A stretch of DNA of 64,000 nucleotides from a virus. The DNA lies in the IMG/VR virus record IMGVR_UViG_3300012936_000003, positions 39,801 to 103,800 of that record, one strand, 5' to 3'. The notes below the pieces were generated by a model that was not told the DNA's origin, did not search any database, and saw nothing but the letters and a program-made list of their open reading frames with translations. The position numbers were made by a program, and so were the translations under genes. Below, in pieces: positions 1,040 through 53,623 of this stretch (its first letter is position 1; each line of letters opens with the position of its first letter).

Positions 1040-4000
1040 CTAGCATGGTGACCAGTTAACGTCCTTGCTCTTACCAGAGAACCCTAAGTTTCTAAAAACA
1101 CGTCTTTTGTGTTTTGCAACGGGGGAACATCTAAATTTACTATCGCTGTGAATCTTCAGCATCGTGGTTTCCCAAGTCTCGCCAGCAGGCAAGTTGCCTG
1201 CATATTGAAAGTGCCACCATTCGGATCCCATCGTGTTTGAACTACAATTTTTAAAATAACTCTTTCTTCCGCCAATTGGCTTATAATTGAATGCTCTAAA
1301 TAGTTGCGTAAGATTAATAAAGTTGCCAGTAACTTGTTTTATTATGGGCTCTCCCTTTGTTCCTCGTGGGCAAACTCGTGCATCCAGAGTTAATCTTTCA
1401 ACCTTGTGTCCTTCATACTCTGTACCGGGCTCTTTGTTAGAGCGTGCCCAAACAACCCACATTCTATTTCCGGGGTATCCCCCTTCTGGATCGTATGTTA
1501 CCACGAATTCACACTCGTTCAAATTCGCCGACGGATAAAGACTGCCAGCATGTGTGTAAATATCAAACGCCATGAATGTGTAGTGGAAAGATGTGGTGCT
1601 TCTGTTTTTATTATTTGGATCATAATTTGCGAGACCACGACCGGTGCCACCCGAAGGTAGAACGCCACCAAGTTCATTAAGAACCTTCTTAACTCCAATC
1701 ATGTCGTTCGCTGCATCTTCTCGCATGTATGCGTTGTTGCCGCCCTTACCTGCACAGAAGTCTGTTCGGATTGCGTCAAACTTAATCTTCACTTTTTTCG
1801 CCTTTGGTTCTGACAGTGGAACCCCTTCTCCTTGATATGTAGGGTTAGGAGTAGATGGACCACCGCTGAATGCGCCGCCACCGCCGTAGCCGCCGCCGCC
1901 AGAGCCGCCAGCGCCACCACCTCCAGCACCGCCTGCACCGCCGCCGGGTGAACACCCACCTCCATTTGTCGGAGTCGTACCTCCGCTGCCAACCTGTCCT
2001 GACGGTCCTTCCGGAGCCGGTTTTGGTGGTTCTGGTGGGGGAGGAGGAGGCTCTGGTGCTTTGTATTCTTCCCAGTAAGTCAGACCCCCTTTGAAATAAG
2101 CAATTAATTTTTGACAAGGATCAACATAATCCCCAAAAACCTGTGGAACCTGATAATCACGCTGGGGTATAAAATCGCCTGCCGCTGTTTTAACAATAGC
2201 TGGCTTGCCTTCGCCAGCCTTGCAGGGTAGAGCCTCCGCAGATAAATATGGTTTATCAGCATCGCTCATTCCGTTTTGATCTGTAACGATCAAATACGGG
2301 TGTACGGGTGGCATTGGACCACCCTTTTTTCTACTCCTCAGTATATTCTCTGGTGATTTTTCCAGCCACTCGTAAAATAAATCTCTTGGAGTCTTTTTCG
2401 CTTCTTCGCTTTTATTTTCTTCTTTGTTATCTTTAACTGTCGTAGCCCCCTCCGTTTTTGCTTTTGGATCTTCTTTTTCAGAATCAGCCTTTGGGTTAGG
2501 GTCTGTCCTAGTAACTTCTTGTTCTGCCACGCCGGTCTCAGGATTGATCAAACCAGAAATGGAGCCTTTGAGTTTTCCAATAAAACTCGTTTCTTCTTTC
2601 TTTTCGCCGCCTTCAGCGGCTGCTCCATCACTGGTAGTTGCTTCAATGTCTTGCCAACCTTCCGGCTTTAAATCTTTGAACAACGTCGGGCAAAGCTGTT
2701 TTGCCAGTGTGGGTGTCCAAGGAATAAGTGGTCTGCCGTTTGAATGGGGAATGTTGTGCTTATTACACAACTCAATGCACCCAGCCCACGCTTTCTGCAT
2801 TTCTTCAGGCTCATAAACAGCCACAAACATCTTAGAACGCACTTTTTGATGCCAATATGGAAACAGGTGCGATCCTACACCGCCGAAGCTACCGCCCGAC
2901 TCAACCGTCCGGAGAAGACCTCCCGGTCCAATAAACGTAGTCAAAATATGAGTCCCGCCGTGTGGTCTTGGGTTTCTCTGTTCCCGAGGAGTAACTGGTG
3001 AGTTGTGTGACAAAACTTTGTTAGCCTCTGTAATCTTTGCACGGGAACCAATAAAAATCTGATCACCGGGCATAACTGGTGGGTGGTCGGCAGCACCCCA
3101 CTCTGTGTTTGGGTCTGTGTTTGGGTCTTTAATACAAACTAAACTTCTAGCCTGACCACGACGATAGTTAGACACGGCGCAATGGTTGGGACCATTGAAA
3201 CCATATCCATTACCCATGTAGTCACGACCAAAACTTCCATTTGCACGACCTTTCATAGCTGGACCCCAACCCGTGATTCCATACACCACTGAGTGCCATG
3301 GCAAGTCAATTGTGCTACCCTCTGGGACGCAGCCTTTTTCTTGACCTTCCGACAAGTATCCCTTACCTGTCCAGCCACGGAATCTAGAAATCTCTAATCC
3401 ATTAAAATTTGTGTCCTTGCTCATCATAAGCTCTACCATGCACCTTGACAAGTTTGTGAAACCAGAACAATCAATTCCACCCTTTTCATAAAACCAATGT
3501 TTGCAACCCCATCCGTAAGGTCTACCACACTGATCTTCAGCCACTAGACGCTGGGCAAAGATAATTCTTTCATGGTAGGTCGGTAAGCTATTGACACATC
3601 CGATGCCAATATTTGCACTAACGGCAACACCCCTGCCGCCCTTCTCAACATAACGAATAAAAGCCGGTCTGTATAGGTGCGCTTTTCCGTTAGCTTTTGA
3701 GTTTGGTGGGTAAGATGGTGTCGTAGTTTGAAAGCAATTCTCGCACGTCTGAGGCGTAGAAGAACCAAAACTTGTAGCTGGTGGTAGTGGTCTAGACTTT
3801 TTAGGGTGTGAATTACAAACCTGCTTTTGTTTAGCTAGGGGCGCATAAGCCTGAACTGGAAACTTTTTATATACCTCAGCGGCATTGGCTGCTGCTAGTT
3901 TTTGAAACTCAGCCGTGTATTCAACCGCCTCACCGGGAGCGCCTGTTGGACCTCCACCTCCGCTGCCGGGACCGCCGCCGACTGGACCGTTAGCTGCATC

Positions 4001-22514: not shown

Positions 22515-22592
<78 letters not shown>

Positions 22593-22638: not shown

Positions 22639-23253
22639 CTAGATAATCTCGTCAATCAGTCCATAACTTAAACACTTTTCTGCGTCCCACCACAGGTCAT
22701 GTTTAAGAATCTTATCTAGTTCTTTTTTTGGAATCTTTGTGTGTTCTTCATAAATTTCTTTAATGACCTTCATGAAATTGTCACAGTTTTCCATGTCATC
22801 TTTAATTTCTTCATACTTCCCCCAAAAACCGGAAGAAAGCTGATGAATAAGCATATAGGCGTGTTTATGCATCTGGCGATGACTGGCACATACACTCATA
22901 ATAGTACCAGCAGATGCAGCGCATCCATCAATAACTGATGTTACTGGTGTCTTTGATTTTAGAATATAATCAGAAGAAGATAATCCAGCAAAAACACTTC
23001 CACCGTATGAATTGATGTGTACAAAGATTCTTCCGGGATCTGTGCTTAGGGCGACAGCCCTGTTCTGAAGACTTACGTCTAGACTATGTAATGCCTTATT
23101 AAGTTCTAGGTTCTTAGCCCTGCTTACTTCTGAATAAAAATAGATTCTGTTATTGACAGTCTCTACCCTGTTGTTATCATCTGAAGAAGCATTTTCAGAT
23201 CCGCAAATTGCAGATTCTTTCTTTGAACTTAACCAGTGAATATCTTTTTTCAT
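22639..23253 (-). CDS. clpP-like: ClpP-like serine protease (S14)
   Basis: 204 residues with ribosome site AAGGAG. After a variable N-terminus of about 30 residues the ClpP fold follows: FVHINSYGGSVFAG (oxyanion strand), GCAASAGTIM with nucleophile Ser114, MLIHQ with His137, and KHDLWWDAEKCLSYGLID with Asp186, all at family spacing. ClpP forms a tetradecameric barrel fed by ClpX or ClpA unfoldases, which are not seen here, so a host unfoldase would be needed. ClpP relatives also serve as phage prohead proteases, but T4-type phages usually use a different protease. Placement between two tRNAs and about 400 bases from a tmRNA suggests a role in protein quality control of infected cells (inference). 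Confidence 0.9.
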   Translation of the reverse strand: MKKDIHWLSSKKESAICGSENASSDDNNRVETVNNRIYFYSEVSRAKNLELNKALHSLDVSLQNRAVALSTDPGRIFVHINSYGGSVFAGLSSSDYILKSKTPVTSVIDGCAASAGTIMSVCASHRQMHKHAYMLIHQLSSGFWGKYEEIKDDMENCDNFMKVIKEIYEEHTKIPKKELDKILKHDLWWDAEKCLSYGLIDEII

Positions 23254-23280: not shown

Positions 23281-23357
23281 TGGCACGCCCGAGAGGACTT
23301 GAACCTCTAACCCTCGGTTTAGAAGACCGATGCTCTATCCAGTTGAGCTACGGGCGC
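23281..23357 (-). tRNA. tRNA-Arg (anticodon TCT)
   Basis: Minus-strand cloverleaf: acceptor GCGCCCG pairs with CGGGCGT, D-arm AGCTCAACTGGATAGAGC, anticodon stem-loop CGGTCTTCTAAACCG with TCT, and T-arm AGAGGTTCAAGTCCTCT. CCA is encoded. It decodes AGA, a codon frequent in AT-rich phage genes. Confidence 0.95.
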
Positions 23358-23662: not shown

Positions 23663-24031
23663 TGGTGGAGGTGGTGGGAGTTGAACCCACGTCCGCAATA
23701 GTTTTAATATCAAGTCATTCACAAGTTTATTTAGTTTACTATCACAAACTAACAAAGATAGACAGAAAATCCCGGTGCTTACTGCCCTGTTGCACTCCAC
23801 CTATAAATAGGGAACCATTTTGGTTTTGTTTGTTTCAGTGGAACCACCCACTTAATCAGCTTTGGTTACAAGGTTGCTGATCACCCCGTCGCATCAATAC
23901 TGTTTAAGCAGCAAGTGCGAAGTCAACGTTGTCGTTGGCATTTAAAGTTTTGCTACACTGTCAAGCTATGTGTTGCCGTTAGCTACTTGCACTCTCAACC
24001 TCTACTACCCCGTCAAATCCACGTCACCCCC
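23663..24031 (-). ncRNA. ssrA: tmRNA (transfer-messenger RNA)
   Basis: A one-piece tmRNA of 369 bases. The 5' end GGGGGTGACGTGGATTTGAC carries the tRNA-like D-loop hallmark. The 3' end has T-arm GTGGGTTCAACTCCCAC and acceptor CACCTCC-ACCA with CCA encoded. The seven acceptor pairs include G3:U70, the alanine-charging identity element. The tag frame at 23904-23939 starts at GCC and encodes ANDNVDFALAA followed by TAA; the ALAA end is the ClpXP/ClpAP degron. tmRNA rescues stalled ribosomes and marks the product for degradation. The partner protein SmpB is not in this window. The first 27 bases overlap the 3' end of the Fis-type gene. Confidence 0.96.
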
Positions 24032-24750: not shown

Positions 24751-25623
24751 TTACAGATCTAGATCTAACTCGTCATCGGCTTCTGCATCATCCCCTAAAT
24801 CTAGTTCATCACCCCCTTCATCGGATGCTGCTTCTTCACCTTCTTCTCTATCTGCTTCTTGGCTATCCTTTTCTGTTTCATACTCTGAAGTAGTCGGCTC
24901 GGGTAACACACTCGCCAACTCGTCCTCAAACTTGTCAAAATAAAGTTTAAGGTTCGTTAGTAAGTAGTCGTAAAATAATTCTCTGTCCTCATCTGCGGAA
25001 AGTAAACCGTAAGCATCAATAATACTTTTCTCAACTCTTTCAAATGCATGGAATGCCATGTTCCTTCCGGTCTCGTCGCCATCAGTACCTGCACCAAACT
25101 TTTCCTCGTCGCTAAGTTCTTCATCACCTTCGCTTCCCGAGTCGTCAATATCAATAAATGCTTCTTCGTCTGGTGACTCTCCTCCGAGTTCGTCCGCTGG
25201 CTCCTCACCAACGTTCAATTCAATTTCTTCTTCGTTAATATCAATTGCTCGCTCTTTTTCTTCTTCTGTCTCTGCCTCGGCTGATGCTTTAGTAGGAGCC
25301 AATGCATTCTGAACTGCGTTGATAATATGTGAGCGGAAAGACTCTCTCTGATCTTCAGAGGTTGTCAATTTTTTATATTCTTGTTCTAGTTGAGGAACGA
25401 TTTTCTTTAGCAAATCCTCAAGGACGTTAATGCCTGTTGATTTGTGTGGGGTCTTCTCGTCAGATTCAGAAATTAGTTTCTTTACTATAGCCCTAAGTTT
25501 TCTCTCCTCCACGAGAGTGCTTCGTCTCGTTACGGATTTAGCCTCATAAACTTTTTCAATAGCTTGCCTAAGATTCATTCTTAGTTTGTATTCTTCAATC
25601 AATTCGTTTCTATCAATAATCAT
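24751..25623 (-). CDS. Acidic helical protein, unknown function
   Basis: 290 residues, ribosome site TAGGAGC. Residues 1-110 form basic helices (LRMNLRQAIEKVYEAKSVTRR). The centre (about 115-185) is extremely acidic and probably disordered. Residues about 188-240 form another helical block rich in Phe/Tyr/Asp (LFYDYLLTNLKLYFDKFEDEL), and the tail is again acidic (ELDLGDDAEADDELDLDL). The layout resembles phage core or scaffold proteins and nucleic-acid mimics, but there is no specific match. It overlaps nothing and starts 2 bases after the fusion enzyme's stop. Confidence 0.6.
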   Translation of the reverse strand: MIIDRNELIEEYKLRMNLRQAIEKVYEAKSVTRRSTLVEERKLRAIVKKLISESDEKTPHKSTGINVLEDLLKKIVPQLEQEYKKLTTSEDQRESFRSHIINAVQNALAPTKASAEAETEEEKERAIDINEEEIELNVGEEPADELGGESPDEEAFIDIDDSGSEGDEELSDEEKFGAGTDGDETGRNMAFHAFERVEKSIIDAYGLLSADEDRELFYDYLLTNLKLYFDKFEDELASVLPEPTTSEYETEKDSQEADREEGEEAASDEGGDELDLGDDAEADDELDLDL

Positions 25624-25625
25624 CT

Positions 25626-28580
25626 TTAAGCTCCTACGTTATATGTCTTCTGGCTACCGCCCCCGAAATTATCTGTCCTGAATTCGTCTTTTCTCATGAC
25701 AGTGATAATTTTAATTTTGTCTGGACCTTTCTTCATATCCAAGGCAGCAATAACGTTTAGTGCTGGAACCTTGTTTGACTTACCCTTCATTCTAATGTGA
25801 AAGGCTTCCCCATTCTCAATTTCTCCGTTGGCGTAATCATTCATAATTAGTCCCAGAGATCTGTCAACAGCCGAAATAATAGCATCTTTTGAAATTTTAT
25901 GACCACCACCTCCGGGCTTCGTATGTCTGAATCTTCTTTCTTCACCGTGTTTTGATGGGATTAGTTCCATGTCTTCAATATCAAGAATAACGGAACCAAC
26001 TTTTAGAACTTTTGATTGTCCACCAAAGTTCTCATACCCCTCTTGTAGTAGAATGTCTTCAAGGATTTCGTTAACCACATTCTCATCAACCATTGATTTG
26101 TAGCTGACTTTTGGAAATTCATTCGCCATGGAAATAAAATCTTCAAAGTTCGCTTTAACACGAACGCTCTTGATAGTGTTCTTTGAATCATCAACTAGAA
26201 GCGCAAACCACCTGTGGTGTCCGTCAACCAAATAATCATCTTCTGTGACAAGAACAGGTTTTGAATTTGAGAGTTCGTCAATAGATTTCTTAGCCAACAT
26301 GCCCTTCACCTTATCAACATTAATCTTTGATTGTGAAGGTTTTAGATCATCAACGGTCATGGCGACAGTTTTTGAATCTACACCCTTGTTAGTTTTTAAC
26401 CATTGCACGAATTCTGTCATATCGCTAGATTTAATTTGAGGCATCTCCTCTCTTGGAATTCCAACATCGGTTTCTACATCAATTTGATCGGATTCTTCTT
26501 CCAATTCTTCTTCTTCGTCCCATGGGTCATATTTGTTTGTCCTCTTTGAGACTCCAACACTGCCTTGCACACCGACAACACTCCCACAACCACCAGAGAC
26601 ATTTAATTCTTCTAGGCTTTCTGAAATAAGCTGGATGATTAAACGTGAGGATTCTTGGATTTCTTCTTTATCTTTTGGTGTTAGTTTATTCATTAGTGAT
26701 TCTGCTTCGCCCTTTAAGGAGTCTGGTAAATATTCAGTAAACGTTTCAATATCACCTGATGAGATAGCAGACCTCATAGTGCTTGCACTTAAAGGCTCTC
26801 CCGTGCGGGAGTCTGTGAATGCACCGCCCGATACATTAACTGTGTATTCTGGACCTGCTAAAACGGTAACGCCTTCGGCAGCATATTTCTGCGCCTTGTC
26901 ACTGAAGCGACTGTCGTCTCCCCCTTTGTTAGAAACACCGAGCACGACCGACTCTCCGGGTTGTGCCCAATCTGGGTTCTGTTCTTCGTTGGCTACAAAC
27001 TTAAACGTTGCCCCAACGGGAGAATTAACCGGAGACTCTAGAACCTTTACATTTGTCAACCCTGCTGAGTTCAGATAAGGTTGCCAAAGCTGATAAGCCA
27101 TGTCAAACCCCATTTCTCTGCCGTCGTCTAGTTTTCTCGGCAACGGAGACATAAATACAATAACACGCTTCGCCATCTTTGCATATTCTGCAACCATAGC
27201 TAGATGACCACGGTGAGGTGGCTTAAACGCCCCCGGTACAACCGCAACATCCACTTCTGCACCTTCTTCACTCAGTACACCAAAATATCTATCGTTATCT
27301 CTCTGTTCCACGTCTTCTTCTTTAACCATGGCGGGAATATCGCCCCTTCCATACTTAAATAGTCCCAAAATCTGGTTTATCGGCGCAAAATTGCCTGTAA
27401 ACTTATAAGTTACCCCATCGTAGTCAAAAACGAAGCCTTCAGATGCTGTAGACACGTTCTCAACAGATTTTAACTTTTTTAAATGTTGATTTAGGATTTT
27501 CATGGCTGCTTCGTTGTTTGAGCCCTCAATTGCGGCGATTGCGGACGATACTTCGCCCCTTAGCCTCTCCACCTCTCTTGTGTTGTCCAAAATGAAGGCA
27601 CTTTGCAACCCACGCAACATTTCAACGGAAAAATCATGAATAATTTCTTCAACAGGTTGAATTGCAGCTTTTCTTAGCTCTTTTTCGCTTTTAATGATGG
27701 CTCTTACGATTTCTTTCTGTTCTCTGTCCAAACCTTTGACAACTTGAGTGAATTTTGTTCCATCTTTCATAAGTCGCCTGATAATAAGCTGGTGTACAGC
27801 CTCATCAACGCCCGGAGCGGATTGTTGGACGTGAGGCTTCAATCTTTCAATCATCCACTGGTTAATTGTAGCGGTATCTGAGAGCCCCACGGAAGTCACA
27901 GCGGAATCTAGTGAGTCAATGGCATCCTGAAGTGCTTCATCGTCCTCAAGAGCCTCTAAGCGCCTCACAGCGTTAATCTGAACAGTATAATCGTCCTCGG
28001 CTGTAGCTTGTTGCATTTGTTCAAGGGCAGATTGCAAAACTTTGGCGTTTGCTGACACATCTTTTGTATTTTCTCCGTCCTTGACCTTCTCGCCGGTAGC
28101 TTTATCGTATTCTGCGTGCCCGACTTGGTGAATCACTAGACTTTTCGTGTCATAGTTAACCACATTCGGAGATCTCGGGTCCATAATCTCTGCATTATAA
28201 TAAATATTTGCATCTGGACCGAATATATTAATTTGTGTTTCTGGATCTAGGGATCTGACAGCTTTTTCAAACGTTTCAAAGGATTCTACGAAGGTTTTAG
28301 TTAGTTCTCCACGACCCTCAAACTTTGCGGCGAGTTCTTCAGCCGTTAAACCGCCTTGTTTGATGTTTCCTTTGTTTCTTGCAGCACGTGCGTTGCCATT
28401 CTGGACCGAATAAGAAATAAAAAGGTTTTGACCGTCTGTTTTTTCGGTTCCTTCAATCTCTCCGTTGGATGCTGCTGTAAATATCTCTTTTATTTTTGCA
28501 AAAGTCAGTTCACCGTTATCATATAGGTGATTCATATGACCCGCAACACCGCCTTCGGTCAAAAAAACGTTCGTGCCCAT
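25626..28580 (-). CDS. Fusion: ligase-like domain, HIGH-type nucleotidyltransferase, ParB-like domain
   Basis: 984 residues with at least three recognisable parts. (1) Residues 40-400 carry motifs in the order of covalent nucleotidyltransferases (DNA/RNA ligases): motif I EKTDG with Lys47, motif III YYNAEI (127-132), motif IV EGFVF (381-385) and motif V YKFTG (392-396), with a helical insertion of about 230 residues between III and IV. (2) Residues 443-620: VVPGAFKPPHRGHL (HxGH of the NMNAT/cytidylyltransferase superfamily) and LSASTMRSAI (the SxxxxR signature). (3) Residues 735-825: VLVTEDDYLVDGHHRWFAL, a ParB/Srx-like NTP-binding core. A separate C-terminal domain follows (855-984). The first two parts would use ATP to transfer AMP. 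The overall reaction is unknown; RNA repair or NAD-type cofactor chemistry are possibilities. Coupled to its neighbours by 1-2 base gaps. Confidence 0.72.
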   Translation of the reverse strand: MGTNVFLTEGGVAGHMNHLYDNGELTFAKIKEIFTAASNGEIEGTEKTDGQNLFISYSVQNGNARAARNKGNIKQGGLTAEELAAKFEGRGELTKTFVESFETFEKAVRSLDPETQINIFGPDANIYYNAEIMDPRSPNVVNYDTKSLVIHQVGHAEYDKATGEKVKDGENTKDVSANAKVLQSALEQMQQATAEDDYTVQINAVRRLEALEDDEALQDAIDSLDSAVTSVGLSDTATINQWMIERLKPHVQQSAPGVDEAVHQLIIRRLMKDGTKFTQVVKGLDREQKEIVRAIIKSEKELRKAAIQPVEEIIHDFSVEMLRGLQSAFILDNTREVERLRGEVSSAIAAIEGSNNEAAMKILNQHLKKLKSVENVSTASEGFVFDYDGVTYKFTGNFAPINQILGLFKYGRGDIPAMVKEEDVEQRDNDRYFGVLSEEGAEVDVAVVPGAFKPPHRGHLAMVAEYAKMAKRVIVFMSPLPRKLDDGREMGFDMAYQLWQPYLNSAGLTNVKVLESPVNSPVGATFKFVANEEQNPDWAQPGESVVLGVSNKGGDDSRFSDKAQKYAAEGVTVLAGPEYTVNVSGGAFTDSRTGEPLSASTMRSAISSGDIETFTEYLPDSLKGEAESLMNKLTPKDKEEIQESSRLIIQLISESLEELNVSGGCGSVVGVQGSVGVSKRTNKYDPWDEEEELEEESDQIDVETDVGIPREEMPQIKSSDMTEFVQWLKTNKGVDSKTVAMTVDDLKPSQSKINVDKVKGMLAKKSIDELSNSKPVLVTEDDYLVDGHHRWFALLVDDSKNTIKSVRVKANFEDFISMANEFPKVSYKSMVDENVVNEILEDILLQEGYENFGGQSKVLKVGSVILDIEDMELIPSKHGEERRFRHTKPGGGGHKISKDAIISAVDRSLGLIMNDYANGEIENGEAFHIRMKGKSNKVPALNVIAALDMKKGPDKIKIITVMRKDEFRTDNFGGGSQKTYNVGA

Positions 28581-28581
28581 T

Positions 28582-28827
28582 TTACCTGTCCTCTTTAGAC
28601 TCTAATAATTGTTCTTCTAATACTTTTACTTTTTCTTCTAATCTTTTAACACTTTTCTTGATTTCACGCAAGTGATTTTTTGCGATTTCTACCCGTCTCG
28701 CCTCTTTTTGAGTGCGAGGAGATAAACTAAGAATAATTTCCTGCAAAGATTGAATATAACTAGCTAAGCTCGGAGGATTGTGACCCTCGTTTAGAACAAA
28801 TCGTCTTGTAATGTCGTTTAAATTCAT
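28582..28827 (-). CDS. Small coiled-coil protein
   Basis: 81 residues with ribosome site AAAGGATAC. Residues 20-78 form long charged helices with heptads (IKKSVKRLEEKVKVLEEQLLES). One base separates it from the fusion enzyme, and a sigma-70 promoter lies 14 bases upstream. Function unknown, perhaps an oligomeric adaptor. Confidence 0.65.
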   Translation of the reverse strand: MNLNDITRRFVLNEGHNPPSLASYIQSLQEIILSLSPRTQKEARRVEIAKNHLREIKKSVKRLEEKVKVLEEQLLESKEDR

Positions 28828-53086: not shown

Positions 53087-53623
53087 TTATTCTCCACCAC
53101 CAGTAGCTGCCCACTCAATATAGGTCATAACATTTTCGCTAATGAGGGAATCGTAAACTTCATCATTCAAGGCGTGCCCAAGTCTCTTGGCAAGTCTCCT
53201 GCCACGCTTCCACGCTTCAATTTCTTCGGCAACGGTAGAGACAAGATAAGCCCTGCTTCTAGAAACACGCTTATCACAGCTTGTAGCAAACATAGGGTTG
53301 TCCTTTTCAAAGGACTGCCAATTCTTGTCAATTAGGAGATGACCACACTCATGAAGAAGGGTGTAGTATTTTCTCTCGGGCTTGATTCTAGAGTTGATGA
53401 AGATTGTGTTGTCCGAAGATTCATAACGATCTTCTGCATCGGTTTGGAACACAATCTTGGTGTTGTACTTTTTTGACCACTCTACAATATCATTTATCTG
53501 TTTTTTAAACGTGTCATTTTTCAAGCGTTTTACCTTTTCTGTGGAATCTGTGATCCCTATTACAGTCAAAGCATAGCACATTAGAAAAAGGTTGTCAACA
53601 GTATTCGTTGTGTTGTTTGACAT
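53087..53623 (-). CDS. ImmA/IrrE-like (DUF955) metallopeptidase-type protein
   Basis: 178 residues. The segment YYTLLHECGHLLIDK holds HECGH (HExxH) after a strand TIFINSRI, the order seen in ImmA/IrrE-type peptidases. The later helix EEIEAWKRGRRLAKRLG may provide the third ligand (Glu). Relatives cleave repressors or take part in toxin-antitoxin and stress responses; phage versions have varied roles. The N-terminus (VDNLFLMCYALTVIGI) is helical. Weak ribosome site. Confidence 0.65.
   Translation of the reverse strand: MSNNTTNTVDNLFLMCYALTVIGITDSTEKVKRLKNDTFKKQINDIVEWSKKYNTKIVFQTDAEDRYESSDNTIFINSRIKPERKYYTLLHECGHLLIDKNWQSFEKDNPMFATSCDKRVSRSRAYLVSTVAEEIEAWKRGRRLAKRLGHALNDEVYDSLISENVMTYIEWAATGGGE

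What the first reader, a model, noticed from the sequence alone, without database searches (positions are those of the whole stretch)
25626..28580. Ligase-like / HxGH nucleotidyltransferase / ParB-like three-domain fusion
Motifs I, III, IV and V of covalent nucleotidyltransferases appear in order (K47TDG, YYNAEI, EGFVF, YKFTG), followed by an NMNAT-type PPHRGH / SASTMR domain and then a ParB/Srx-like DGHHR core. Joining two different AMP-transferring folds with a ParB-like NTPase core is unusual. It could form, remove or transfer adenylated or NAD-like caps on nucleic acid, or repair damaged tRNA or RNA.
Basis: partly seen in the sequence, partly recalled or inferred. Interest (0 to 1): 0.76.

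Follow-up and report, generated by a model that had tools for sequence, protein, structure and literature searches.

The report
Phage head-borne ligase-like/adenylyltransferase fusion protein
A large marine T4-like virus of bacteria carries one protein that joins a previously unrecognised RNA-ligase-like enzyme to an NAD-synthase-like enzyme, probably packed in the virus head and injected with its DNA, which may let the virus mend or tag RNA as soon as infection starts.

Summary
ORF 25626-28580(-), 984 aa, has ligase motifs I, Ia, III, IV and V in order; the key residues are essentially invariant in 67 non-redundant homologues. A confident AlphaFold model (pLDDT 94, pTM 0.91) finds as its only plausible PDB matches RNA ligases, DNA ligases and capping enzymes, though weakly. 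A NMNAT/PPAT-type HIGH domain follows. The pair is the conserved core. The ParB/Srx-like part is a rare accessory (5 of 67), swapped for other tails, most often the product of the next gene. Cyanophages carry an analogous pair as adjacent genes: DUF6267 plus 'cytidyltransferase'.

I add a delivery hypothesis. Half of the homologues have a leader ending hydrophobic-x-E|GG, the T4 prohead-protease consensus; most of the rest start exactly at M|GG. The cyanophage adenylyltransferase has textbook capsid-targeting leaders (33 of 64), and mass spectrometry has found such proteins in cyanophage virions. tRNA and tmRNA genes cluster directly downstream.

Best reading: a T4-like phage 'internal protein', injected with the DNA, carrying two AMP-transfer active sites, most likely for repair or adenylylation of RNA ends. 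Fold and motifs are well supported; packaging is inferred; the substrate is unknown. New variant of a known kind.

The parts
28554..28580 (-). N-terminal leader MGTNVFLTE| (res 1-9), capsid-targeting/prohead-protease-like (L-x-E|G)
   Evidence: 38 of 79 homologues have a leader ending hydrophobic-x-E|GG, 38 start at M|GG, 3 other; neighbouring unrelated proteins share N-terminal MK..W-R-K-Y-L-x-E leaders. Function inferred.
27321..28553 (-). Ligase-like (covalent nucleotidyltransferase fold) domain, res 10-420; K47 codon 28440-28442
   Evidence: Invariant motifs I, Ia, III, IV, V; AF2 pLDDT 94.3, pTM 0.91; Foldseek best plausible PDB matches are all ligases/capping enzymes
27471..28055 (-). 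Helical insertion between motifs III and IV (res ~176-370), specific to this family
   Evidence: Secondary structure of the models
26661..27254 (-). HIGH-superfamily adenylyltransferase domain (NMNAT/PPAT-like), res 443-640; PGAFKPPHRGH and SASTMR
26031..26483 (-). ParB/Srx-like accessory domain (res ~700-850), DGHHR core
   Evidence: phrog_2859 1e-25, phrog_620 4e-4; PF08857 0.0068 sub-threshold; in 5 of 67 homologues; stand-alone in Ackermannviridae and Aeromonas phages
25629..26030 (-). C-terminal segment (res ~851-984), unnamed, mobile
   Evidence: Separate 228-aa ORF, 71% identical over 141 aa, in L024; no Pfam hit for the segment or for L024, no PHROG hit for L024
24751..25623 (-). Acidic partner protein (290 aa), next gene; fused to the C-terminus in 20 of 67 homologues and the next gene in 33 of the other 47
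   Evidence: no relative in 50,697 phage records
28582..28827 (-). Upstream coiled-coil protein (81 aa) with leader-like MNLNDITRRFVLNE|G; its cluster is present in 37 of 78 loci, median position just upstream
23663..24031 (-). Phage tmRNA downstream of the operon (tRNA-Arg 23281-23357 and tRNA-Pro 22516-22592 follow)
   Evidence: conserved position in homologous loci

Best explanation
This is a T4-like phage 'internal (head) protein' with two AMP-transfer active sites. The N-terminal domain is an RNA-ligase-type covalent nucleotidyltransferase that would adenylate Lys47. The second domain is a NMNAT/NadD-like adenylyltransferase. A short L-x-E|G leader would bring the protein into the prohead core and be cut off by the prohead protease, so that the enzyme is injected with the DNA. 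In the cell it most likely repairs or adenylylates RNA ends (tRNA, tmRNA) cut by host defence RNases, before phage genes are expressed. The C-terminal ParB/Srx-like and other tails are exchangeable accessory modules. Shown by computation: fold, motifs, pairing of the two domains, leader pattern, tRNA/tmRNA neighbourhood. Inferred: packaging and injection of this protein, catalysis, RNA as substrate.
For: Ligase fold and invariant catalytic residues. HIGH domain. Domain pairing in nearly every relative, with order swapped in Microcystis phage Mel-JY01 (L028) and split into adjacent ORFs in a jumbo phage (L031). No OB-fold after motif V, as in RNA ligases rather than DNA ligases or capping enzymes (plus family knowledge). 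In nine large relatives and S-PM2 no PF09414 or PF09511 RNA ligase was found, and no NadV in any of the 12 records searched, so the domain may be the phage's own RNA ligase and is not part of a NadV salvage route. In 78 loci all 19 tmRNAs and 86-88 of 103 tRNAs lie downstream, nearly all within 6 kb. Leader: 38 LxE|GG against 38 M|GG; shared leader type in 43 of 1471 neighbouring ORFs against 1-4 in control windows; T4-type prohead protease PF03420 in all nine large relatives, S-PM2 and Mel-JY01. Cyanophage HIGH proteins: 33 of 64 with CTS-like leaders against 13 of 375 other ORFs, p about 1e-21. S-SCSM1 encodes one HIGH protein in its whole genome; it begins MKSFLQFLKE|A, and a NMNAT of that phage was detected in virions by mass spectrometry (PMC9602691). 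A cytidylyltransferase was detected in S-CREM2 virions (PMC10665884). T4 CTS biology: PMC9026906, PMC3012670.
Against: PDB fold matches for the ligase domain are weak (best E 8e-3, TM about 0.2), and motif V has one lysine instead of K-x-K. Half of the homologues have no leader. The cyanophage DUF6267 proteins, the ligase-like half there, lack leaders (1 of 89). The window's own record (103.8 kb, incomplete) shows no PF03420 match. The window's leader is shorter than the T4 CTS. The proteomics papers allow that the protein was a contaminant of the virion preparation. The tRNA/tmRNA neighbourhood may be inherited synteny. No activity is known.
Confidence: 0.42

Rival explanations
1. NAD-centred enzyme: the ligase-fold domain uses NAD+ as its AMP donor (as LigA does) and the NMNAT-like domain rebuilds NAD+ from the released NMN; or the protein mainly supplies NAD+ against host NADase defences.
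For: NMNAT-type signature PGAFKPPHRGH...SASTMR; single lysine in motif V as in LigA (own knowledge); authors of the virion proteomes propose NAD supply (PMC9602691, PMC10665884).
Against: No NadV in any of 12 records, whereas every NadM phage has NadV (PMC9503650); no room for a LigA Ia (NMN-binding) domain before K47; HIGH-domain substrate not tested.
Confidence: 0.2
2. Nucleic-acid or protein tagging: one site makes a dinucleotide or NAD-like cap and the ligase-like site attaches it to RNA, DNA or protein during early infection.
For: Two different AMP-transfer folds kept together in nearly all relatives and, independently, as adjacent overlapping genes in cyanophages.
Against: No direct evidence of any cap or substrate.
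Confidence: 0.15
3. Structural or scaffold role: a catalytically idle head protein whose domains are relics.
For: Late-gene neighbourhood with large structural-looking ORFs; first HIGH histidine altered in the exceptions inspected among 14 of 67.
Against: Ligase active-site residues essentially 67/67 invariant.
Confidence: 0.1
4. DNA ligase or genome-end repair enzyme acting on the injected phage DNA.
For: African swine fever virus DNA ligase is among the fold matches; DUF6267 lies beside gp41 and UvsX replication genes in cyanophages.
Against: No OB-fold/motif VI needed by DNA ligases; the best fold hits are RNA ligases.
Confidence: 0.13

Closest known systems
DUF6267 (PF19782, T4-like GC71) plus 'cytidyltransferase' (T4-like GC190) of Kyanoviridae; phrog_455, phrog_3041, phrog_395
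   Same: KxDG...(Q)GD/E...EGxV...K order, N-terminal HxxHxxD, followed by a HIGH adenylyltransferase: fused in one ORF (L160/L167, phrog_455) or the next, often overlapping gene in 61 of 74 testable loci
   Different: No significant profile-profile match to the window's N-domain (4-7% probability); separate genes there, fused here; leader on the HIGH gene there, on the fusion here
RNA ligases Rnl1 (T4), archaeal Rnl3, fungal Trl1 ligase domain
   Same: Motifs I, Ia, III, IV, V; fold; no OB-fold
   Different: 200-residue helical insertion between motifs III and IV, no C-terminal Rnl-type domain, single motif V lysine, fused HIGH domain
NadM / NadR / CoaD (HIGH adenylyltransferases)
   Same: GxFxPxHxGH and S-x-x-R signature, fold
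   Different: Partner domain is ligase-like, not Nudix or kinase; no NadV in the phages
Capsid-targeted T4 internal proteins (IPI-III, Alt) and polyvalent injected proteins (PMC9026906, PMC5512222)
   Same: LxE leader, head packaging (inferred), multi-domain with variable modules including ParB-like
   Different: Enzyme content (ligase-like plus HIGH) not described for either class in the papers read

Membership tests
Covalent nucleotidyltransferase (ligase/capping) superfamily | Motif I KxDG lysine, motif Ia Arg, motif III Glu, motif IV Glu, motif V Lys in order | tested here: met
   essentially invariant in 67 homologues; motif V has one Lys (YKFTG), not K-x-K
Covalent nucleotidyltransferase (ligase/capping) superfamily | Ligase nucleotidyltransferase fold | tested here: met
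   pLDDT 94.3 model; best plausible matches in PDB are all ligases/capping enzymes, E 8e-3 to about 1; viral library RNA ligases E 5e-4 onward after the family itself. Weak scores, so moderate strength
DNA ligase / mRNA capping enzyme | C-terminal OB-fold with motif VI | tested here: not met
   only two short helices follow motif V in the model
RNA ligase (function) | Lys-AMP formation and RNA joining | not testable with these tools
   needs biochemistry
HIGH-superfamily adenylyltransferase (NMNAT/PPAT) | GxFxPxHxGH and S-x-x-R motifs, Rossmann-like fold | tested here: met
NAD-salvage NMNAT (NadM/NadR) | Accompanied by NadV, or fused to Nudix/kinase | tested here: not met
   PF04095 absent in 12 of 12 records; the window's record is incomplete
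DUF6267 (PF19782) | Match to the family profile | tested here: not met
   No PF19782 match in the relatives' records searched nor for P0001 in the Pfam scan; hhalign 4-7%. Similar motif order only
ParB/Srx superfamily | DGHHR-type core and profile match | tested here: inconclusive
   DGHHR present; PHROG ParB 4e-4, Pfam sub-threshold; free serine kinase (ParB/Srx) aligns at the motif with E 0.4-0.9
T4-type capsid-targeted internal protein | N-terminal leader ending (L/I)xE|(G/A) | tested here: met
   FLTE|GG in the window; 38 of 79 homologues
T4-type capsid-targeted internal protein | Prohead protease (PF03420) in the same phage | tested here: inconclusive
   Present in all nine large relatives; no match in the incomplete window record
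T4-type capsid-targeted internal protein | Found processed in virions | not testable with these tools
   Literature only: HIGH proteins in S-SCSM1 and S-CREM2 virions

The most novel reading that the evidence does not exclude
A large, so far unnamed class of phage enzymes (this fusion family plus the cyanophage DUF6267/cytidyltransferase pair) in which an unrecognised RNA-ligase-type enzyme and a dinucleotide-making HIGH enzyme work as one device, carried in the capsid and injected at the start of infection to repair or cap RNA against host tRNA-cutting defences.
Probability: 0.22. Interest if true: 0.85.

Novelty: new variant of a known kind. Interest (0 to 1): 0.6.

Why it matters
The 'cytidyltransferase' of T4-like cyanophages is widespread (530 phage records match) and has been seen in virions without a role. 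Linking it to a ligase-type partner and to a head-targeting leader gives a testable role: a pre-loaded RNA-repair or adenylylation machine. It would also assign a likely fold and chemistry to a new phage domain family and, by analogy, to DUF6267, and supply a simple leader signature for finding other injected proteins in uncultivated T4-like phages.

Tried and rejected
Single-sequence search against PDB: nothing. Ligase-domain profile against PDB sequences: only chance helical hits. The first AlphaFold job on both domains let the HIGH domain dominate Foldseek, so the ligase domain was modelled alone. Homology of the N-domain to DUF6267 by profile alignment: not significant even with 89 DUF6267 sequences; kept as analogy. 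Defence-system library: no hit. Vibrio phage 2.275.O: the neighbour of its HIGH gene is a repeat protein by eye, not a ligase. ParB as a core part: rejected, in 5 of 67 only. Acidic partner in named phages: no match. Bacterial genomes: only two metagenome-assembled-genome contigs, so the family is essentially viral. No paper describing this pairing was found.

Full report
What is there. The window is bases 39801-103800 of a 103.8 kb virus record. ORF 25626-28580(-) encodes 984 aa in a tight operon with an 81-aa coiled-coil protein upstream (28582-28827) and a 290-aa acidic protein downstream (24751-25623). A tmRNA and two tRNA genes follow.

Anatomy. Residues 1-9 are a leader; 10-420 a ligase-like domain; 443-640 a HIGH adenylyltransferase; ~700-850 a ParB/Srx-like part; ~851-984 an unnamed segment. 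I collected about 80 distinct homologues from uncultivated viral contigs. In 67 non-redundant sequences the residues expected in the covalent nucleotidyltransferase active site are essentially invariant: K47, D49, G50 (motif I), R68 (Ia), E131 (III), E381-G382-x-V384 (IV), K393 (V). The AlphaFold model of this domain from 65 sequences has pLDDT 94.3 and pTM 0.91. Foldseek against PDB gives, in order, archaeal RNA ligase, fungal Trl1 ligase domain, African swine fever virus ligase, T4 Rnl1 and capping enzymes, and lower down other ligases, with weak scores (E 8e-3 to about 1); interspersed with these, from about E 0.9, are long unrelated proteins such as spike glycoproteins at probability below 0.05. 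Against viral models the first hits are uncharacterised or 'Cytidyltransferase-like' phage proteins of the same family, then many RNA ligases from E 5e-4.

The HIGH domain matches archaeal NMNAT (2.3e-10) and folds as NMNAT/PPAT. Both domains occur together in nearly every homologue; the order is reversed in Microcystis phage Mel-JY01 (L028), split into neighbouring ORFs in a jumbo phage (L031), and interrupted by a large insert in L021 and L096. The C-terminal part is not conserved: ParB-like in 5 of 67, homologue of the acidic neighbour in 20 of 67 (and in 33 of the other 47 it is the next gene). The acidic protein is therefore the closest functional partner; the ParB-like part is an accessory that is also a stand-alone gene in Ackermannviridae, Aeromonas and Tenacibaculum phages.

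A parallel pair in cyanophages. Synechococcus phage S-PM2 carries DUF6267 followed by a 'cytidyltransferase'. Of 74 DUF6267 loci with room downstream, 61 have the HIGH gene within 2.5 kb, mostly overlapping or abutting; two encode both in one ORF, and phrog_455 spans both. DUF6267 shows HxxHxxD, KWDG, (Q)GD, EGxV and K in the same order, but profile comparison with the window's domain is not significant. I therefore call it analogous and possibly homologous, not a member.

Delivery. The homologues fall into two N-terminal classes: 38 with a short leader ending hydrophobic-x-E directly before GG, and 38 that start M-GG; 3 differ. (I/L)-x-E|(A/G) is the cleavage consensus of the T4 prohead protease (own knowledge; CTS leaders reviewed in PMC9026906 and PMC3012670). 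All nine large relatives tested, S-PM2 and Mel-JY01 encode the T4-type prohead protease; the window's incomplete record shows no match. Unrelated neighbouring proteins share a longer leader of the type MKxLLExWRKYLxE: 43 of 1471 ORFs in the first 70 residues against 1-4 in control windows. In cyanophages the HIGH protein, but not DUF6267, has CTS-like leaders (33 of 64 against 1 of 89; other ORFs 13 of 375). A profile scan of the whole S-SCSM1 genome finds one HIGH protein, with N-terminus MKSFLQFLKE|A; a NMNAT of S-SCSM1 (ORF91) was detected in virions by mass spectrometry (PMC9602691), and a cytidylyltransferase in S-CREM2 virions (PMC10665884). I infer that ORF91 is this single gene; accession numbers were not matched. 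Packaging of the window's protein is an inference from these.

Function. In 78 loci all 19 tmRNAs and most of the 103 tRNAs lie downstream of the gene, nearly all within 6 kb. No canonical RNA ligase was found in the nine large relatives or S-PM2 (Mel-JY01 has one), and no NadV in any of 12 records. That argues against NadV-type NAD salvage (PMC9503650 reports NadM always with NadV) and fits RNA repair or adenylylation, but synteny by descent cannot be excluded. Probability by step: ligase-type fold 0.9; catalytic competence of both sites 0.75; head packaging of leader-bearing members 0.6; RNA as substrate 0.45.

Novelty. The architecture exists in databases under uninformative names; I found no paper that recognises the ligase-like half or the pairing. 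It is a new variant of known enzyme folds.

Noticed in passing
window 23663-24031 and 78 homologous loci: Phage tmRNA genes, rare in phages, recur 0.3-6.5 kb downstream of this gene in about a quarter of loci and are never upstream.
   Followed up: partly
N-termini of neighbouring ORFs, e.g. L016:298-849, L011:16682-17230, L094:4881-5669: A shared N-terminal leader MKxLLExWRKYLxE|(G/A/S) on many unrelated proteins (28 clusters); a candidate capsid-targeting signature for finding injected proteins in T4-like phages.
   Followed up: partly
C-termini of homologues, e.g. L018, L016, L021, L025; also L013:12115-13707: A recurring module EISSMAGGSVxGY...LIREEE at C-termini, also in an unrelated protein; possible second processing or packaging tag.
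   Followed up: partly
L021:113-4828: A 1572-aa version with an N-terminal metallopeptidase-like part (GHELVHHKQ, by eye) and a tandem HEAT-like repeat block between the ligase-like and HIGH domains, resembling a polyvalent protein.
   Followed up: no
window 25629-26030; L024:7737-8420: The C-terminal ~140 aa (FRHTKPGGGGHKISKDAI...ITVMRKDEF) is a mobile domain with no Pfam hit, possibly RelE/BECR-like by eye.
   Followed up: partly
window 53087-53623 and 22639-23253: A metallo-protease-like protein (phrog_87) and a ClpP-type protease (head-maturation-protease PHROGs) in the same window.
   Followed up: no
L217 (CP070664.1, WOR-3 MAG chromosome 151927-169147): A homologue inside a 2.8 Mb bacterial MAG chromosome; probably a mis-joined phage contig.
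   Followed up: no
L114:1489-2067 and 1958-3268 (S-PM2): The S-PM2 DUF6267 gene is split over two frames relative to other cyanophages (frameshift or sequencing error).
   Followed up: no
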